NCBI RefSeq assembly: GCF_024506395.1
Contig: NZ_JANIBO010000001.1
Span: 682,001-746,000, forward strand
Reading direction: 5' to 3'
Length of the DNA stretch: 64,000 nucleotides
DNA from: Cetobacterium sp. NK01
GTDB lineage: Bacteria; Fusobacteriota; Fusobacteriia; Fusobacteriales; Fusobacteriaceae
Shown here: piece by piece, positions 8,115 to 62,624 of the stretch
Layout: every line of letters starts with the position of its first letter
Numbering within the stretch: position 1 is the first letter of the stretch
Made by a program: the position numbers and the translations under genes
The notes under the pieces: generated by a model
What the model was told of the DNA's origin: nothing
Database searches by the model: none
Seen by the model: only the letters and a program-made list of their open reading frames with translations

Positions 8115-10955
8115 TTATCTCTCTCCTTTTAATGCTTTTTTTAAGTATTTACTTGTATAACCTTTTTTAGAAGAAGCTATTTTTTCTGGAGTTCCTGTTA
8201 AAATAACTTTTCCTCCACCATCTCCACCTTCAGGTCCTATATCGATTATATAATCAGCATTTTTTATTACATCTAAATTATGCTCTATAATTATAACTGT
8301 ATTTCCTTTTTCCACTAATCTATTAATTACTTCTAAAAGTTTTCTTATATCTTCAAAATGTAATCCTGTTGTTGGCTCATCTAAAATATATACAGTTTTT
8401 CCTTTTGATATTTTAGATAATTCACTTGCTAATTTTATTCTTTGAGCTTCCCCTCCAGATAGTGTTGTAGCAGGTTGGCCTAATTTTATATAATCTAAAC
8501 CTACATCCACTAATACCTTTAGTTTTCTTTCTAGTGTTGGTATTGTTTTGAAGAAATCATATGCTTCTCCCACACTCATGTCCAATACATCTGAAATATT
8601 TTTTCCTTTGTAGTAAACTTCCAATGTTTCCCTATTATATCTTTTTCCTCTACATACCTCACATTCAACATAAACATCAGGTAAAAAATTCATTTCTATT
8701 TTGATTATTCCAGCACCCTGACATGCTTCACATCGTCCGCCTTTTACATTAAAAGAAAAACGACCTTTTGAGTATCCCTTAGCTTTTGCATCTTTTGTTT
8801 GAGAGAAAATATCTCTAATATCATCAAATACTTTTGTATATGTAGCTGGATTTGATCTTGGAGTTCTTCCAATAGGACTTTGATCTATATCTATAACTTT
8901 ATCTAAATTCTCTAATCCTTCAATAGAAGAATATTCTAATGGATAAAGCTTACCCTTATTTAATTTATTAAATAAAATTGGATAAAGAGTTTGATTTATT
9001 AGTGTTGATTTTCCACTTCCACTTACTCCTGTTACAACAGTTAAAACACCTAAAGGTATATCTACATCTACATTCTTTAAATTATTCCCCTTTGCTCCTT
9101 TTAAAGTTATATACCCTTTGGGCTCTCTTCTCTTTTCTGGTACAGTTATACCTATTTCACCTTTTAAGTATCTCCCTGTCATTGAAGTCTCATTATCCAT
9201 AACTTCTTGTGGTGTTCCTGCAGCTACAATTTCACCACCAAACACTCCTGCTCCCGGTCCCATATCTAAAATATAATCAGCTTGATGCATTGTATCTTCA
9301 TCATGTTCAACAACAATAAGTGTATTTCCTAACTCTTTCAATCTATTTAAAGTGGCTAAAAGTTTATCATTATCTCTTTGATGTAATCCAATACTTGGTT
9401 CATCTAAAACATACAATACACCTGTTAGCCCTGACCCAATTTGAGTTGCCAATCTAATCCTTTGAGACTCTCCTCCAGATAATGTTTTTGTCTCTCTAGC
9501 TAAACTCAAATAATCTAATCCCACATTTATCATAAACGATATTCTTTCTTTTATCTCTTTTAAAATCTCTGCTGCTATTTGTTTCTCTTTTTCTGTTAAC
9601 TCTATATTTTCAAAAAAATTTAGAGCATCTTTTATACTTAGTTCTGTTATCTCAATTATATTTTTATTATAAACAGTTACAGCTAAAACTTCTGGCTTTA
9701 ATCTTTTTCCATGACACACCTTACATATTCTTTCTATCATAAATCTATTTTCTATCTCTTCTCTAGAACTCTCTGAAAACGATTCATTATATCTTCTTTC
9801 TAAATTCTTTACAATTCCTTCAAAATCCTTTTCTCCATGAAAACTAAACTCTTTTGATGTATAGTCCACTCTAAATTTCTCTCCATCAGTTCCATAAAAA
9901 ATTATATCCATCTCTTTTTTAGTTAAATCTTTTACTGGTTTATCTAAATCAATTTTATATTTTTTTGCCATAGATTCAAATATTGTCCATGTATAACCCT
10001 TTTTAGCTGATGCTGCTCCTGGAACATATAATCCACCTTTTAATATTGATAAATTTTCATCCTCTATTAGTCTACTTTCATCAATTTCTAATTTTTTCCC
10101 TATTCCTTTGCATTCAGGACAAGCTCCAAAAGGAGCATTAAAAGAGAATAGTCTCGGGTTTAAATCTGGAATGCTTACATTTTCATGATCTGGACATGAA
10201 AAATTTTCACTATATAATTGTTCTCCATCTCCCCAGTTTATTATTATTTTTCCTTCTGATAGTTCAATCCCTTGCTCTATACTTTGAGTTAATCTTGATT
10301 TAAACTCCTCATCTTCCTTATCTACAACAATTCTATCTACAACAACTTCAATATTATGCTTTTTGTTTTTATCTAAGTTTATCTCCTCTTCAATATAAAG
10401 AATTTCACCATTAACTCTTGCTCTTACAAATCCCTTTTTTACAAGATTTAAAAATAGATTTTTGTGTGTTCCTTTTTTATCTTTAACAACAGGACTTAAA
10501 ATCATTAGTCTGTCACCATTATTAAATTTTTCATATACATTTTCCACAATTTCATCAACACTTTGTCTCTCTACTAATTTTCCACATATTGGACAATGTG
10601 CTTTACCTATATGTGCAAATAATAACCTCATATAATCATATATCTCTGTTACTGTCCCTACTGTTGATCTTGGATTTTTATTTGTTGTTTTTTGTTCAAT
10701 TGAAATAGCCGGTGCTAACCCTTCTATGCTATCTACCTCTGGCTTTTTCATTTGTCCAATGAATTGTCTTGCATAAGCCGATAAACTTTCTACATATCTT
10801 CTTTGTCCTTCTGAATAAATAGTATCAAATGCTAGCGATGATTTTCCACTTCCACTTACTCCTGTTACAACAACAAATTTATACTTTGGAATTTCTATAT
10901 CAAAATTTTTAAGATTATGTTCTCTAGCACCTTTTATAATTATTTTGTCTAACAT
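8115..10955 (-). CDS. uvrA: Excinuclease ABC subunit A
   Basis: Damage-recognition ATPase of nucleotide excision repair. The 946-residue protein has two ABC ATPase modules: Walker [10 protein letters not shown] near residue 33 and [10 protein letters not shown] near residue 640, with signatures LSGGESQRI and LSGGEAQRI. Zinc-binding cysteine pairs of the UvrA insertions include [13 protein letters not shown] and CEACQGAG. Full family length. It opens the uvrA-ruvA-phoH operon. The radC terminator lies immediately upstream, so its promoter must overlap that short region or the radC 3' end. Confidence 0.97.
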
Positions 10956-11720: not shown

Positions 11721-12770
11721 TTATTGAAATATTTCATAAACCTCATCTTTTGTTTTCATTATTTTAGGAATTTCTACTGCTGCTTTCAAAATAGGATACG
11801 CCAAAACTGCTCCAGTTCCTTCTCCTAAACGCATCTCCATATGTAAAAATGTTTTTAAATCTAGTGCTGTCATAACGACTTTCATTCCTGGTTCTTCACT
11901 CATATGAGTTCCTATTAGGTAATTTTTTACCTTTGGTTCTATTCTAGTTGCAACTAATGCTGCTACTGCTGATATAAAACCATCTATTAGCATAGGCTTT
12001 CTCTCTAATGCTGCACCTAAGTAAAGTCCAACCATACATGCTATATCAAGTCCACCAACGCATCTTAAAACTTCTATTGGTTCTTTATTAAATAAATCAT
12101 ATTTCAGACAAGCATCTTTTATCACATCTTTTTTTCGTCTTAATCCCTCATCTGAAAGTCCTGCACCACAACCTACAACTTTTTCTATATCCTCTTTTGT
12201 TAAAGCGTATAATATAGCTGAACTTGTTGTTGTATTAGCTATTCCCATCTCTCCATTAGAGAAGAAATCATACTCTTTTTTTTCTTTTATTATTTCTACT
12301 CCAACTAAGATTGCTTTTATTACCTCATCTAAACTCATAGCAGGTTCCTTACTAAAATTTTTAGTTCCATAAGCTATTTTTTTTACGTATAAGTTTTCAT
12401 AGTTTCTTGGAATATCTCCTTTTATTCCAATATCTATCAAATTTAGAGGTATTCCTAAACTTTTACATAAAATTCCAATAGCTGCAAAAGAGCTTAACAT
12501 TGCTTCTGAGACTATTCTTGTATATTCTATTGGACAAGATGATACTCCTTCTTCTATAACTCCATTATCAGATGATGCTATAAAATGGCATCCAGCTTTT
12601 AATTCATTTAGGGGTTGGCCTGTTATTCCCGCTACTTTCATTGCTAAATCTTCTAAAACACCTAAACTTTTCTCAGGTTTCATTCTAGAATCTAATATTT
12701 TTTTACACTCTTTTATAGCTTCTGTATCAACACCAATTATATCATTTTGAATCTTTTTTATTCTGTCCAA
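11721..12770 (-). CDS. cobT: Nicotinate-nucleotide--dimethylbenzimidazole phosphoribosyltransferase
   Basis: CobT activates the lower ligand of cobalamin: nicotinate mononucleotide plus 5,6-dimethylbenzimidazole gives alpha-ribazole phosphate. The 349 residues match the family length. Characteristic stretches are MGIANTTTSSAI and VVGCGAGLSDEG in the middle, and HMSEEPGMK and MRLGEGTGAVLAYPIL near the C-terminus, which contains the catalytic glutamate. The start is TTG, preceded by AGGGGGC with a 6-nt spacer, and it begins just after the cobC stop. It is fourth in the cobU-cobS-cobC-cobT nucleotide-loop operon. Confidence 0.95.
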   Translation of the reverse strand: MDRIKKIQNDIIGVDTEAIKECKKILDSRMKPEKSLGVLEDLAMKVAGITGQPLNELKAGCHFIASSDNGVIEEGVSSCPIEYTRIVSEAMLSSFAAIGILCKSLGIPLNLIDIGIKGDIPRNYENLYVKKIAYGTKNFSKEPAMSLDEVIKAILVGVEIIKEKKEYDFFSNGEMGIANTTTSSAILYALTKEDIEKVVGCGAGLSDEGLRRKKDVIKDACLKYDLFNKEPIEVLRCVGGLDIACMVGLYLGAALERKPMLIDGFISAVAALVATRIEPKVKNYLIGTHMSEEPGMKVVMTALDLKTFLHMEMRLGEGTGAVLAYPILKAAVEIPKIMKTKDEVYEIFQ

Positions 12771-23500: not shown

Positions 23501-24003
23501 TTTTCTTTTCCAAAAATATTTATATAGTTTTCTATTTTTTTTCCAACTGTCATTTCATCTTCATTTTCTAATATAGCTCTAGATATCTCTCCCTGCATAC
23601 AAGCTGAAAGAGCTATTATTCCTTCACTATGCATTTTTAGAAATTCTTTATCTACACGTGGTCTATAGTAAAATCCATTTAAAAATCCTGCTGACGATAT
23701 TTTTAAAAGATTTTTATATCCCGTTATATTTTTAGCTAAAAGTATCAAGTGAAAATTTCTTCCCTCTTTTTTATCCATCTGAAACTCTGAAATATATGCC
23801 TCTATTCCTATAATAGGTTTTATTCCTTTATTTATTGCACTTTTATAAAACTCTATAGCTCCATACATATTACCATGGTCTGTTATTGCTATAGCTTTCA
23901 TGTTTAATTCTTTTGCTCTTTCTAAATACTCATCTATCTTTCCAACTCCATCTAGAAGACTGTACTCTGTATGTAGATGTAAATGAACAAAATTTTTATT
24001 CAT
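20587..24003 (-). CDS. dnaE: DNA polymerase III subunit alpha (DnaE)
   Basis: Replicative polymerase. The 1138 residues start with a PHP domain (HLHTEYSLLDG, ITDHGNMYGA), followed by the C-family polymerase core with GPGRGSAAGSL near residue 358 and the catalytic PDIDIDI near residue 397, tandem HhH region, and a C-terminal OB-fold. This is the DnaE (not PolC) architecture. GGAGGAG precedes the ATG, and the upstream MFS gene overlaps it by 8 bp, so the two are translationally linked. Confidence 0.96.
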   Translation of the reverse strand: MNKNFVHLHLHTEYSLLDGVGKIDEYLERAKELNMKAIAITDHGNMYGAIEFYKSAINKGIKPIIGIEAYISEFQMDKKEGRNFHLILLAKNITGYKNLLKISSAGFLNGFYYRPRVDKEFLKMHSEGIIALSACMQGEISRAILENEDEMTVGKKIENYINIFGKENFYLEVQGNGIDGQQELNRELQRYSKKYEIKCVATNDTHYVYEGDHVLQDLVICIQTGAKVSDTNRMKIETKELFLKSRIEVLNSLGDEFIDAVNTTEEIAEKCNLNLEFGELKFPKYQIPNCVKTPGEFLRKIVYQGLAQRYPSGLSEELLKRVEYELEVILKMGYEEYFIVVWDFIAYAKGQNIPIGPGRGSAAGSLVAYALKITDLDPLKYNLIFERFLNPERISMPDIDIDICQERRGEVIDYVTQKYGSDKVAQIITFGRMKARAALRDVGRVLDVSLVKVDKIAKLIPPFSTLGEALKENPEIRDLYTEDSEVRNLINLSQRLENKVRHASIHAAGVVITKDPLIEIVPLYSDNKDHTISTQYQMKELEELGLLKMDFLGLRNLTNLQRTIDYIKESKNKKIKLEDISLNEKKVYEMLSTGDSLGVFQLESLGIRKILVQLKPNRFEDIIALLALYRPGPLGSGMVENFINCKNGIEEIKYPHPTLEKVLKETYGVILYQEQVMKIANIMANYSLGEADLLRRAMGKKQASIMDENREKFVERAIKNGYLKEKAEEIFDLIDKFAGYGFNKSHSAAYALIAYWTAYFKCFYPEEYYASIMTSEKSNVENVAFYIEDAKLHKLKLKLSDVNNPVSKFTVEDGGIRFSLAAIKNVGESLAEKIKVEFERNGNFLRYEDFIYRLRGQGLNKKNIEALIYSGALDSLPGNRKQKIESIEKVIDYANKKIKEDDIQQMNLFGGAKSEVVNFVFPDVSDFTPDEKLEKEKEFLGFYYSAHPLDKYDWIIKTHKMNGISEIKTENSLHGIKTYGILRDVKKILTKKTKEPMCTFVLEDYYDQISGIIFPREYKDYLNIELEGKAVLIDGSVQIDYFNGNENKKIVVKNIKALNSIEFNKKNRLYILVNDKSKDKYSRLKEILLENKGEVPLSFAIDIDGNKELKNSKLNIEITPGLIRKLEELLGEKSIIIR

Positions 24004-25189
24004 CCGCTCCTCCTCTCAATGGCTTTTCCTCTTTAAAACTTCTATAAAAAACACCAGTTCCTATTAAATATAAAACTACTGTTATATAATACGGAAAGTT
24101 GTACGAAACTTTTTCCATTAAATATCCTGCAATAATCATACTTAGAGCTCTTGTTACATTAGATGACACAGAAACAATACTACTCATCAAAGCTCTGCTT
24201 TCATACTCTACAGTTTCTAAAGATATATTTTGAATAAGTGGTTGGTTTAAATTCATCAATGTCGATCTTAAAAAAAATGAGACTCCTAAAACAAAAATTC
24301 CTTGAGGAAAAGCAATTGATATTAAAAATGGTATTGATAACAATTGACAAACAACAACTGTATTTTCTCTTCCAAGAATTTTAGATATGTAAGGAACTAA
24401 TAAACCTCCTATAACTAACCCTATTTGTGATAATCCCATAATAATACCTACCTTCTCATTATCTATGTTCAAGGAAAATTTTAAATATACACTAAAAAAT
24501 GGTATTACTAATCCTGCTCCAAATCCAATAATCGTATTATAAATAACAAATTTTAAAGCTTGCCCACTCATAACTTCTTTAAAACCCTTAAAAAAATCTT
24601 TACTTTTATTACTTTTTACCTTATCATTAATTTTTAAATTTTTTAAAGGATAGAATCCTATTAAAATTATAAATACACACAATATATATACCAATGGAAT
24701 TGATTTTTCTATTGCAAAAATTTTCCCAAAAGTTTTAATTAATTTTCCAGCACTATAACTTGCAAATACTGTTCCTAAGCTTTGACTTACAAAATTTTTG
24801 CTAAAAACTTTTACTCTTTCTTTTTCAGAAGAATTTTCAATTAAAAGAACCCCTATAGATGAAAACGGAAATCCATAGCCTATTCCCATTATACCTGTAG
24901 ATAATTTTATTAAAAATGGATTAATAAAAAAACTTACACCTAAAATGCCAATAGACATAAATACTAATCCTATAGATATTGTTTTTTTAAAGCCTATTTT
25001 TGAACTCAAGTAAGCATTTATCATTGATCCTAAGGCTATTGATACACTTCCTATTGATAAAACTTGCCCTACTATGCTTTCACCATAACCTAGATTTTTA
25101 ACATGTATTCCTGTAAAAACATTAAAAACTCCTGAAATAATAGCTGTTGTAACCACATTTATAAAAATTATTTTATCAATTTGCTTCAA
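23996..25189 (-). CDS. Major facilitator superfamily transporter
   Basis: The 397 residues form about 12 hydrophobic segments with a basic central loop (about 190-205, KINDKVKSNKSKD), the usual 6+6 MFS layout. I cannot assign the substrate. The start is TTG at 25189, set by a GGGGGAG ribosome-binding site 6 nt upstream. A TATAAT box lies at about 25216-25221, between this gene and the tandem terminators. The 3' end overlaps dnaE by 8 bp; linking a transporter to dnaE is unusual and probably accidental. Confidence 0.82.
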   Translation of the reverse strand: MKQIDKIIFINVVTTAIISGVFNVFTGIHVKNLGYGESIVGQVLSIGSVSIALGSMINAYLSSKIGFKKTISIGLVFMSIGILGVSFFINPFLIKLSTGIMGIGYGFPFSSIGVLLIENSSEKERVKVFSKNFVSQSLGTVFASYSAGKLIKTFGKIFAIEKSIPLVYILCVFIILIGFYPLKNLKINDKVKSNKSKDFFKGFKEVMSGQALKFVIYNTIIGFGAGLVIPFFSVYLKFSLNIDNEKVGIIMGLSQIGLVIGGLLVPYISKILGRENTVVVCQLLSIPFLISIAFPQGIFVLGVSFFLRSTLMNLNQPLIQNISLETVEYESRALMSSIVSVSSNVTRALSMIIAGYLMEKVSYNFPYYITVVLYLIGTGVFYRSFKEEKPLRGGADE

Positions 25190-25249
25190 CTTTATCTCCC
25201 CCTAAAATTGACCTAATATATTATACAATATAAATCTATAAAAAAAAAT

Positions 25250-25271
25250 ACTTCCAATTAGAATTAGAAGT
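25250..25271 (-). terminator. Second terminator downstream of the candidate small RNA
   Basis: Minus-strand hairpin ACTTCTAATT/AATTGGAAGT (one U-G pair, 2-nt loop) followed by A and nine Ts. It lies 11 bp beyond the first terminator hairpin, giving a tandem stop before the MFS gene. Confidence 0.75.
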
Positions 25272-25273
25272 AC

Positions 25274-25315
25274 AAAAAAATGAAACGACCTTCCGGGGGG
25301 GATAGAAGGCCGTTT
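25274..25315 (-). terminator. Terminator hairpin with C7 loop
   Basis: 11-bp stem (one G-U) around the loop UAUCCCCCCCG, then UUUCAUUUUUUU on the minus strand. Confidence 0.75.
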
Positions 25316-25395
25316 ACAGGGGGGGATTAAATAATACTTTTATAAGTATAAAGTCTTCGTTGTAACTAAAAATTATTATTAATCTTTTTAATTAC
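25274..25395 (-). ncRNA. Candidate C-rich small regulatory RNA
   Basis: A minus-strand transcript of about 120 nt fits between a sigma-E-like promoter (25401-25429) and a terminator. It carries two CCCCCCC runs: one single-stranded (25319-25325) and one (25295-25301) in the loop of the terminal hairpin AAACGGCCUUC/GAAGGUCGUUU (25283-25315), followed by CAUUUUUUUG. The stem has a G-U pair on this strand but an A-C mismatch on the other, which supports the direction. C7 loops would bind G-rich ribosome-binding sites. Fusobacterium nucleatum has a sigma-E-dependent sRNA, FoxI, that represses membrane proteins; kinship is a guess. It could alternatively be the 3' UTR of rlmA. Confidence 0.55.
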
Positions 25396-25400
25396 ACTTT

Positions 25401-25429
25401 TTTGACGCAACACTTTGTGGAAAAGTTTT
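25401..25429 (-). promoter_or_regulatory. Possible sigma-E-type promoter
   Basis: Minus-strand AAAACTT (25423-25429), 16-bp spacer, GTCAAA (25401-25406). This resembles the proteobacterial sigma-E consensus (GGAACTT and GTCAAA/TCTRA). A match to a sigma-70 promoter here is poor. Inference from pattern only. Confidence 0.4.
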
Positions 25430-25436
25430 AATCTTT

Positions 25437-26258
25437 TTAATTTTTTTCAAAAATATCTATATTTACTTCAACTATCGTTTTTAATTTATTCAAAGCAAAT
25501 AATTTTTCAACTCCTTTTTGTGGACTTCTCCATCTATAAGGTGTCATATTAAATAAGTTTTCTATACTTTCTTTTTCTAAAATTTCAGTCTCATATTTTA
25601 TGTTTATTGTTTCTAAATGATTAAATAATTTTAAGTCTTCTACTGGAGAGTAAAACTCTTTTCTTACAGAGTCATATACTACTTCTTTTAACTGTAATAA
25701 GTGATTTTCTCCTGTTGAAACTACAATTAATTTTCCACCTTTTTTTAAAGTTCTCATTTTTTCTTCAGGTATTATTTTAGCAAACATACATATTATAAAA
25801 TCTAAACTTTCATTTTCTATTGGTAATGAACTTGCACTAGCTACAATCCATTCAATACTTTTATAAGATTTTGCTGCTGAAACAATCGCCTCTTTAGAAA
25901 TATCAATTCCTATTATTTGGTTTTTTATATTTGATTCATCTAATTTTTCTTTAAGTCTATTTGTATAATATCCCTCTCCACAACCTATATCTAGTATTTT
26001 AACTTCTTTATTTTTTATGCTATTTAAAATAATTTCATTTACTCCATTTGATATCCCTTCATAATACCCTTTCTCCAAATAATTTTTTCTACTTAAAACC
26101 ATCTCTTTATTATCTCCTGGTATTTTACTATTTTTTTGATTAGATAATAATAAATTTACATGGCCATATTTAGAAATATCAAAATTATGATTTCCTTCAC
26201 ATATATATTTTCTATCAATTTTTACCATTTTTTTATTACAAACTGGACAAATTATCAT
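25437..26258 (-). CDS. rlmA: RlmA-type 23S rRNA guanine-N1 methyltransferase
   Basis: The 273 residues begin with a zinc-ribbon (CPVC near residue 4, then CEGNHNFDISKYGHVNLL) followed by a SAM-dependent methyltransferase domain with motif I ILDIGCGEGYYTNRL near residue 95. This is the RlmA layout, which methylates N1 of a guanine in helix 35 of 23S rRNA. Which of the related positions (745 or 748) is modified cannot be read from sequence. GAGGTAGAT precedes the ATG. It is transcribed toward the candidate small RNA and its terminator. Confidence 0.87.
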   Translation of the reverse strand: MIICPVCNKKMVKIDRKYICEGNHNFDISKYGHVNLLLSNQKNSKIPGDNKEMVLSRKNYLEKGYYEGISNGVNEIILNSIKNKEVKILDIGCGEGYYTNRLKEKLDESNIKNQIIGIDISKEAIVSAAKSYKSIEWIVASASSLPIENESLDFIICMFAKIIPEEKMRTLKKGGKLIVVSTGENHLLQLKEVVYDSVRKEFYSPVEDLKLFNHLETINIKYETEILEKESIENLFNMTPYRWRSPQKGVEKLFALNKLKTIVEVNIDIFEKN

Positions 26259-61961: not shown

Positions 61962-62624
61962 ATGTACAAAATTATTTTTCTATTCATTATTTTAACTCAG
62001 TCAATCTTTTCAAAAGAAATTTTAATTAGTGGTGCTGCATCTTTAAAAGAGTATTTAGAAAAAAATATTGAAGAGTATAATAAGAAGATTGATCCAAATC
62101 TTACTATCTCTTTAAACTTAGGTGGCTCTGGCACTTTAAAAAGACAGCTTGAACAAGGTGGAGAGGTTGACATTATATTTCTTGCAAATAGAGATTATAT
62201 GATTGATTTAAAAAATAATAACTATTTATTCGATGAGGAAGTTATTTTAGAAAACTCTTTAGTTTTAATAAAAAATAATAAGACTTCTTCTAATGAAGGT
62301 ATTTTAGCTATAGGCGATCCTAAATATGTTCCAGCAGGTCAGTATGCTTCTGAAGTTTTAAATAACTTACCTTTAAAACAATATTCTCTAGTTTATGGAA
62401 AAGATGTTAGAAGTGTTCTTTCTTATGTTGAGTTAGGAGAAGCTGATTTTGGGATAGTCTATTTAACAGATACAAAGTTGCTAAAAAATTCTGAAGTTAT
62501 TGAAGTTTTCCCAAAAATTCTTCATAAACCAATTGAATATTCAATTGGTATTTCAAAAACTACTAAAAATAAAGAAGATTCTGAAAGATTTCTAAATTTT
62601 TTAAGAGGTAAAAATTGGGAATGA
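61962..62624 (+). CDS. modA: Molybdate (or tungstate) ABC transporter substrate-binding protein
   Basis: Periplasmic binding protein. The 220 residues start with a short signal peptide (YKIIFLFIILTQSIFSK), followed by ILISGAASLKEYLEKNI and LNLGGSGTLKRQLEQGGEVDIIFLANRDYM, matching the ModA oxyanion-binding layout; GEADFGIVYLTDTKL is the second-lobe motif. The N-terminus lacks a lipobox cysteine. Its ribosome-binding site is a G7 run (61952-61958, context CAGGGGGGGTATTTATG), far richer than its neighbours'. It overlaps modB. Confidence 0.9.
   Translation: MYKIIFLFIILTQSIFSKEILISGAASLKEYLEKNIEEYNKKIDPNLTISLNLGGSGTLKRQLEQGGEVDIIFLANRDYMIDLKNNNYLFDEEVILENSLVLIKNNKTSSNEGILAIGDPKYVPAGQYASEVLNNLPLKQYSLVYGKDVRSVLSYVELGEADFGIVYLTDTKLLKNSEVIEVFPKILHKPIEYSIGISKTTKNKEDSERFLNFLRGKNWE

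What the first reader, a model, noticed from the sequence alone, without database searches (positions are those of the whole stretch)
25274..25429. Candidate small RNA with two C7 runs behind a sigma-E-like promoter
Seen on the minus strand: AAAACTT-16 bp-GTCAAA, then about 120 nt ending in a hairpin whose loop displays CCCCCCC and a U-tract; a second CCCCCCC is single-stranded just before it. The stem uses a G-U pair only on this strand. Known: C-rich loops in several bacteria bind G-rich Shine-Dalgarno sites, and Fusobacterium nucleatum has a sigma-E-driven small RNA, FoxI, that represses membrane proteins. Inferred: this may be a homologous or analogous stress regulator.
Basis: partly seen in the sequence, partly recalled or inferred. 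Interest (0 to 1): 0.75.

Follow-up and report, generated by a model that had tools for sequence, protein, structure and literature searches.

The report
Multicopy twin-C-run stress RNA family
The spot holds a very likely gene for a small regulatory RNA switched on by the cell's envelope-stress sigma factor, and it proves to be one of about 16 dispersed sister genes in this fish-gut bacterium (Cetobacterium), which together probably shut down genes whose ribosome-binding sites are runs of G.

Summary
On the minus strand a sigma-E-type box (AAACTT-N16-GTCAAA) precedes a ~120-nt RNA. It has a 5' hairpin, an unpaired UUUAAU-C7, and a terminator hairpin with C7 in its loop. Box, both C-runs and stems are kept in 10 of 11 other genomes of the genus (Cetobacterium), always next to rlmA; stem pairs covary.

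The genome has ~16 sister genes with the same box and twin C-runs, most with shorter RNAs (73-92 nt), on chromosome and smaller replicons. In 11 genomes I collected 75 copies, 67 with both C-runs. The same box stands before the ECF sigma gene in nearly all Fusobacteriaceae examined, so sigma-E control is well supported by sequence. Public Cetobacterium plasmid records list no gene at seven copies checked. No Rfam family matches.

It is not FoxJ (different locus and fold). Homology with FoxI could not be tested, because its sequence is not held. It works like FoxI/FoxJ and like Listeria LhrC. The likely mechanism is pairing of C-runs with G-rich ribosome-binding sites, mostly of envelope proteins. 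In the window the best predicted targets are modA and the adjacent MFS gene.

No transcript or regulation has been measured.

The parts
25401..25428 (-). sigma-E (ECF)-type promoter AAACTTTTCCACAAAGTGTTGCGTCAAA (-35 AAACTT, -10 GTCAAA, 16 bp after AACTT)
   Evidence: Sequence; only such box in the window, 0.1 expected; same box before the ECF sigma gene of nearly all relatives and before 75 sister copies, spacing 16 in 69/75
25274..25397 (-). predicted small RNA, about 120 nt (start site inferred 5-10 nt after GTCAAA; end in U7 tract)
   Evidence: Fold -26.8 kcal/mol, z -4.2; conserved in 11 loci, 98.8% of stem cells paired, 7 pairs with two-sided changes, 0/500 shuffles
25361..25396 (-). 5' hairpin of the RNA (12 bp), found only in the long class
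   Evidence: two pairs with two-sided changes
25334..25349 (-). small 6-bp hairpin
   Evidence: four of six pairs never vary; no two-sided change
25319..25331 (-). seed 1: UUUAAU followed by C7, unpaired
   Evidence: UUUAAU in 61/67 twin copies; first run unpaired in 66/67
25295..25303 (-). seed 2: C7 in the terminator loop
   Evidence: C-run unpaired in the terminator loop in 67/67 twin copies
25274..25315 (-). intrinsic terminator hairpin plus U tract
   Evidence: 12 bp, 96.6% paired over 25 copies, 7 pairs with two-sided changes, 0/500 shuffles
25240..25272 (-). second hairpin (TACTTC...GAAGTA) followed by U9: backup terminator of the locus
   Evidence: sequence; present in several but not all orthologues
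25437..26258 (-). upstream neighbour, RlmA-like 23S rRNA methyltransferase; constant neighbour of this copy
   Evidence: Pfam Zn_ribbon_RlmA 50 bits; adjacency in the Cetobacterium loci
25198..25202 (-). G5 in the ribosome-binding site of the downstream MFS gene: candidate target
   Evidence: a run of G4-G7 in all 11 loci, a 13-nt perfect seed complement in L148; duplex -16.5 (own) and -26.7 kcal/mol (L148)
23996..25189 (-). downstream MFS transporter
   Evidence: Pfam MFS_1 131 bits
61950..61956 (+). G7 ribosome-binding site of modA: best predicted target in the window
   Evidence: best of 57 genes by duplex energy, -21.3 kcal/mol; G6-G8 also in G007 and G009
61962..62624 (+). modA, periplasmic molybdate-binding protein
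   Evidence: TIGR01256 132 bits, cut-off 62.5

Best explanation
The locus is a small-RNA gene transcribed from a sigma-E (ECF) promoter. It is one member of a dispersed Cetobacterium family with about 16 loci in this genome. Under envelope or oxygen stress sigma-E, which appears to control its own gene through the same box, would switch on all members together. Each RNA offers two separate C-runs, one in a single-stranded stretch (UUUAAU-C6-7) and one in the terminator loop. Either would pair with a G-rich Shine-Dalgarno site and block ribosome entry. Predicted targets are a minority of mRNAs with G5-G8 ribosome-binding sites, enriched for exported and envelope proteins. Shown by sequence: promoter match, structure, conservation, copy number and complementarity. 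Inferred: transcription, sigma-E dependence, repression, target identity.
For: Box at the ECF sigma gene across the family; 14 exact boxes in the genome against 0 for the reversed pattern; 75 box + C-run copies in 11 genomes; box + C-run pattern 0-1 hits per genome in the reversed control. Covarying terminator and 5' stems. C-runs unpaired in 66-67 of 67. G-U asymmetry favours this strand. Predicted targets: modA best of 57 genes; MFS neighbour with a G-run in 11/11 loci; 14 gene groups keep a G6+ ribosome-binding site in two or more genomes, 7 exported against 17/139 baseline, p 0.0016. Precedents: FoxI and FoxJ repress fomA under sigma-E and carry C-stretch seeds (PMC11005410); [quoted passage not shown] csRNAs predicted by regulator box plus terminator were all detected on the northern blots done (PMC3091779).
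Against: No RNA data of any kind. In the window's own genome GGGGGG-N2-11-ATG is no more frequent than the reversed pattern (23 against 22), though it is in some relatives. The exported-protein enrichment rests on a crude signal-peptide rule and a hand-judged set of 14 groups. The putative outer-membrane protein gene beside copy C4:109859 has an ordinary AGGAGG site, so not all such genes are targets. This locus has GTCAAA where most copies have GTCTAA.
Confidence: 0.74

Rival explanations
1. The RNA is mainly a cis-acting leader or readthrough terminator between rlmA and the MFS gene: a sigma-E-dependent 5' end with an attenuator, not a trans-acting RNA.
For: It lies between two genes on the same strand, and the MFS site is complementary to it.
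Against: Here two terminator-like hairpins in series, and in the loci read a conserved TATAAT box, separate it from the MFS gene. Most sister copies lie in unrelated contexts with no common downstream gene.
Confidence: 0.1
2. The dispersed copies are a MITE/REP-like repeat that happens to carry a promoter and a terminator; the RNA has no regulatory role.
For: Copies are scattered over chromosome, plasmids and prophage regions; two identical copies sit on one contig.
Against: The stem changes with compensation while UUUAAU-C6-7, the C-run loop, the box and its 16-bp spacing stay. The long class stays at one site in all 11 loci. The box is that of the sigma gene itself.
Confidence: 0.06
3. The family is the Cetobacterium form of FoxI itself, expanded in copy number (compatible with the best explanation on mechanism).
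For: Same kind of promoter; [quoted passage not shown] A single-run group (own C1:535493, L040) has only the linear run. L189 in genus g13 shows GTTAATCCCCCC after a sigma-E box.
Against: The R1 model found nothing in genera g13 and g7. The rlmA neighbourhood carries no such RNA there. The FoxI sequence could not be obtained.
Confidence: 0.3

Closest known systems
FoxJ (Fusobacterium nucleatum; PMC11005410)
   Same: sigma-E promoter, C6 seed, published repressor of FomA; no Hfq in that host
   Different: FoxJ lies between der and ylmH, is ~156 nt, with its C-run in a hairpin loop. In Cetobacterium der is followed by a response-regulator gene and no box; the family here has an unpaired run plus a terminator-loop run and many copies.
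FoxI (Fusobacterium nucleatum; described in PMC11005410)
   Different: One gene is described in F. nucleatum; up to 16 here, with a second run in the terminator loop. Sequence relation untested.
LhrC1-5 (Listeria monocytogenes; PMC4132741)
   Different: Controlled by the LisRK two-component system, five copies, shorter UCCC motifs, Firmicutes; no Rfam match here.
csRNAs of streptococci (PMC3091779)
   Same: 2-6 small RNAs per genome under one stress regulator (CiaR), one known on a plasmid
   Different: CiaRH-controlled, Firmicutes, fewer copies.
6C RNA (RF01066)
   Same: two C-rich loops (own knowledge)
   Different: Only 22.7 bits against a cut-off of 47, E 0.54.

Membership tests
sigma-E-dependent small RNA of Fusobacteriaceae | promoter shared with the sigma-E gene | tested here: met
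   AAACTT-N16-GTCNAA before the ECF sigma gene in most relatives and before this locus
sigma-E-dependent small RNA of Fusobacteriaceae | discrete transcript lost without sigma-E | not testable with these tools
   no RNA data
sigma-E-dependent small RNA of Fusobacteriaceae | exposed C-stretch as seed | tested here: met
   runs unpaired in 66-67 of 67 twin copies
FoxJ | located downstream of der | tested here: not met
   this copy is next to rlmA; der in 11 Cetobacterium genomes has no box within 1.5 kb; a FoxJ-like RNA is at der in G018
FoxJ | C-run in the loop of a non-terminator hairpin | tested here: not met
   first run unpaired, second in the terminator loop, against the FoxJ-like fold
FoxI | sequence similarity to FoxI | not testable with these tools
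   FoxI papers not held; no FoxI sequence in PMC11005410; no Rfam match in the window
FoxI | C-stretch in a linear region | tested here: met
LhrC | matches the family's covariance model, or is LisR-controlled | tested here: not met
   no Rfam match at the gathering score and no LhrC-named hit up to E 5; the promoter is ECF-type; LisR control itself was not tested
6C RNA (RF01066) | score at or above the Rfam gathering cut-off | tested here: not met
   22.7 bits against 47

The most novel reading that the evidence does not exclude
One ECF sigma factor drives a swarm of up to 16 nearly interchangeable twin-C-run RNA genes spread over the chromosome, megaplasmid, plasmids and prophages of Cetobacterium. 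This would make a dose-amplified, partly mobile anti-Shine-Dalgarno response that silences a whole class of G-run mRNAs at once, with plasmids and phages adding their own copies to the host's stress response.
Probability: 0.4. Interest if true: 0.78.

Novelty: new variant of a known kind. Interest (0 to 1): 0.63.

Why it matters
Sigma-E small RNAs are known from Proteobacteria and, since recently, as two genes in F. nucleatum. Here the same arm of the response seems to have expanded to 10 or more genes, unannotated where I could check, in a fish-gut genus, some on plasmids and prophages. It would be, to my knowledge, among the largest multicopy small-RNA families under one sigma factor. It gives a simple testable rule, C-run against G-run ribosome-binding site, and a natural system for asking why bacteria keep many copies of one small RNA.

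Tried and rejected
Rfam at gathering score: no family in the window; at E up to 5: only sub-threshold hits. FoxJ orthology rejected by locus and fold. FoxI papers are not held, and the open FoxJ paper prints no sequence. Papers on Cetobacterium small RNAs or sigma factors: none relevant. Named-genome pattern scan gave Cetobacterium records plus two hits in unrelated MAGs, judged chance and not examined. Viral contigs: one true copy (L435); the other hits lack the box-RNA-terminator layout. Phage records: none. Comparing sense and antisense folding energy of terminators was uninformative (22 of 67 favour sense).

Full report
**What is there.** On the minus strand the gap between an rlmA-like methyltransferase gene (25437-26258) and an MFS gene (23996-25189) holds AAACTTTTCCACAAAGTGTTGCGTCAAA, then about 120 nt ending in a 12-bp hairpin with C7 in its loop and U7 after it. 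A second C7, preceded by UUUAAU, is predicted unpaired. The fold also has a 5' hairpin and a small middle hairpin (-26.8 kcal/mol, z -4.2). In 64 kb only three G/C runs of six or more exist, two being these; the box occurs once against 0.1 expected.

**Which organism.** The genome is 3.1 Mb in 8 contigs. A pattern scan of named genomes hits Cetobacterium records. Relative G009 has contigs of 704,842, 181,744 and 40,685 bases, the lengths of the C. somerae plasmid records CP092520, CP092521 and CP092523; the first is from strain CS2105-BJ. So genus g1 is very probably Cetobacterium.

**Conservation of this copy.** It lies directly after rlmA in 11 Cetobacterium loci counting this one, and in altered form with three C-runs in G031 of genus g10; it is absent at that place in the g13, g7 and g2 loci examined. 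The 11 sequences keep both C-runs. 98.8% of stem cells pair, with 7 pairs changed on both sides and 0 of 500 shuffles as good. G-U cells exceed A-C cells 29 to 4, as expected for an RNA of this strand.

**A family.** The locus has sisters. A DNA search found five more in the genome. The pattern CCCCCC-N4-26-CCCCCC found 13 distinct places. Covariance model R1, built from 25 three-prime modules whose stem has 7 of 12 pairs changed on both sides, found 16 matches here and 2-15 in ten of the eleven other genomes of the genus, and none in the incomplete G001. I collected 75 copies with box and C-run. 67 have both runs; the spacing after AACTT is 16 in 69; UUUAAU precedes the first run in 61 of 67; the runs are unpaired in 66 and 67 of 67; RNAs are 73-92 nt, or 115-132 nt in the long class to which this locus belongs. 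Copies lie on the largest contig and on five smaller ones of the genome. The database plasmid records of C. somerae hold copies with no annotated feature under them (that gene table is incomplete), one between genes next to Fic and phage holin. A similar setting occurs in a viral contig from an isolate.

**Promoter.** The genome has 14 exact AAACTTTT-N14-18-GTCTAAA boxes and none for the reversed pattern. One stands before a 150-aa ECF sigma gene. Its orthologues, found in 52 of 61 Fusobacteriaceae genomes, mostly carry the same box among the 30 read (missing in the g7 cases seen). That the F. nucleatum sigma-E gene shares its promoter motif with foxI and foxJ is published (PMC11005410). The F. 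nucleatum sequences themselves were not available by name.

**Other sigma-E C-run RNAs.** Outside Cetobacterium, box + C-run RNAs occur in g8, g5 and g13, several next to FomA-like porin genes, named from memory of FomA. In G018 one stands after der, as published for FoxJ, with C6 in a hairpin loop ahead of the terminator; a ylmH gene downstream was not confirmed. In Cetobacterium der is followed by a response-regulator gene and no box. In G012 der is followed by a tandem array of at least four 96-bp box + C-run units. The family here is therefore not FoxJ. A single-run group in Cetobacterium (L040 and relatives) has only the linear run and might be nearer to FoxI; this could not be tested.

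**Targets.** Of 57 window genes scored, modA has the best duplex (-21.3 kcal/mol); it encodes a periplasmic protein. The MFS gene was not picked up with its correct start in that ranking; taken separately its duplex is -16.5 here and -26.7 in L148, where 13 nt of the seed pair perfectly, and its ribosome-binding site has a G-run in all 11 loci. Across six genomes, 14 gene groups keep a G6+ site in two or more genomes, among them a lipoprotein in five, a chaperone-like secreted protein in four, ModA in three, and GlgD- and GlgB-like genes. Seven of the 14 are exported, against 17 of 139 ordinary genes (p 0.0016). This is suggestive only: the classification is crude, and the pattern is not enriched over its reversed control in this genome.

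**Mechanism.** Most likely, sigma-E switches on all members; their C-runs pair with G-rich Shine-Dalgarno sites and block translation. Two seeds per RNA resemble LhrC, where loop, single-stranded and terminator motifs are redundant (PMC4132741). That regulator-box plus terminator predicts real RNAs well was shown for csRNAs (PMC3091779). Transcription, sigma-E dependence and repression are inferred here.

**Verdict.** Observation confirmed; interpretation right in kind but too narrow. I file it as a new variant of a known kind: a multicopy, twin-seed branch of the fusobacterial sigma-E small-RNA response.

Noticed in passing
L321 (G012, genus g2), from position 2832 of its reverse complement to the contig end: Downstream of der, at least four head-to-tail 96-bp units, each a sigma-E box, a C5 hairpin and a terminator: a tandem array of FoxJ-like RNA genes.
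   Followed up: partly
L181, L183, L185, L188, L190: In genera g8, g13 and g5 sigma-E C-run RNA genes lie next to FomA-like porin genes, in g13 as tandem pairs.
   Followed up: partly
L435 (viral contig), L438 (NZ_CP092520.1): A family copy sits at a prophage lysis region near Fic and holin/endolysin genes.
   Followed up: partly
L252/L253 (own contig C6, copies at 10248 and 40341): Two identical copies 30 kb apart on one 65-kb contig within a near-identical repeated stretch that carries a resolvase-like gene.
   Followed up: no
L039 (C1:248962) and L047 (C4:29338): Two near-identical sigma-E-box elements without C-runs; what they transcribe is unknown.
   Followed up: no
window 11721-12770, minus strand: A gene whose leader AGGGAUUAAAUAUAGGGGG is the second-best predicted partner of the seed.
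   Followed up: no
L206, L352, L383, L416 and L353, L382, L415, L428: Genes that look like glgD and glgB keep a G6-G7 ribosome-binding site in several Cetobacterium genomes.
   Followed up: partly
75 copies in L001, L007-L016, L235-L302: C-run lengths vary from 4 to 10 between copies, which suggests slippage and possible tuning of seed strength.
   Followed up: no
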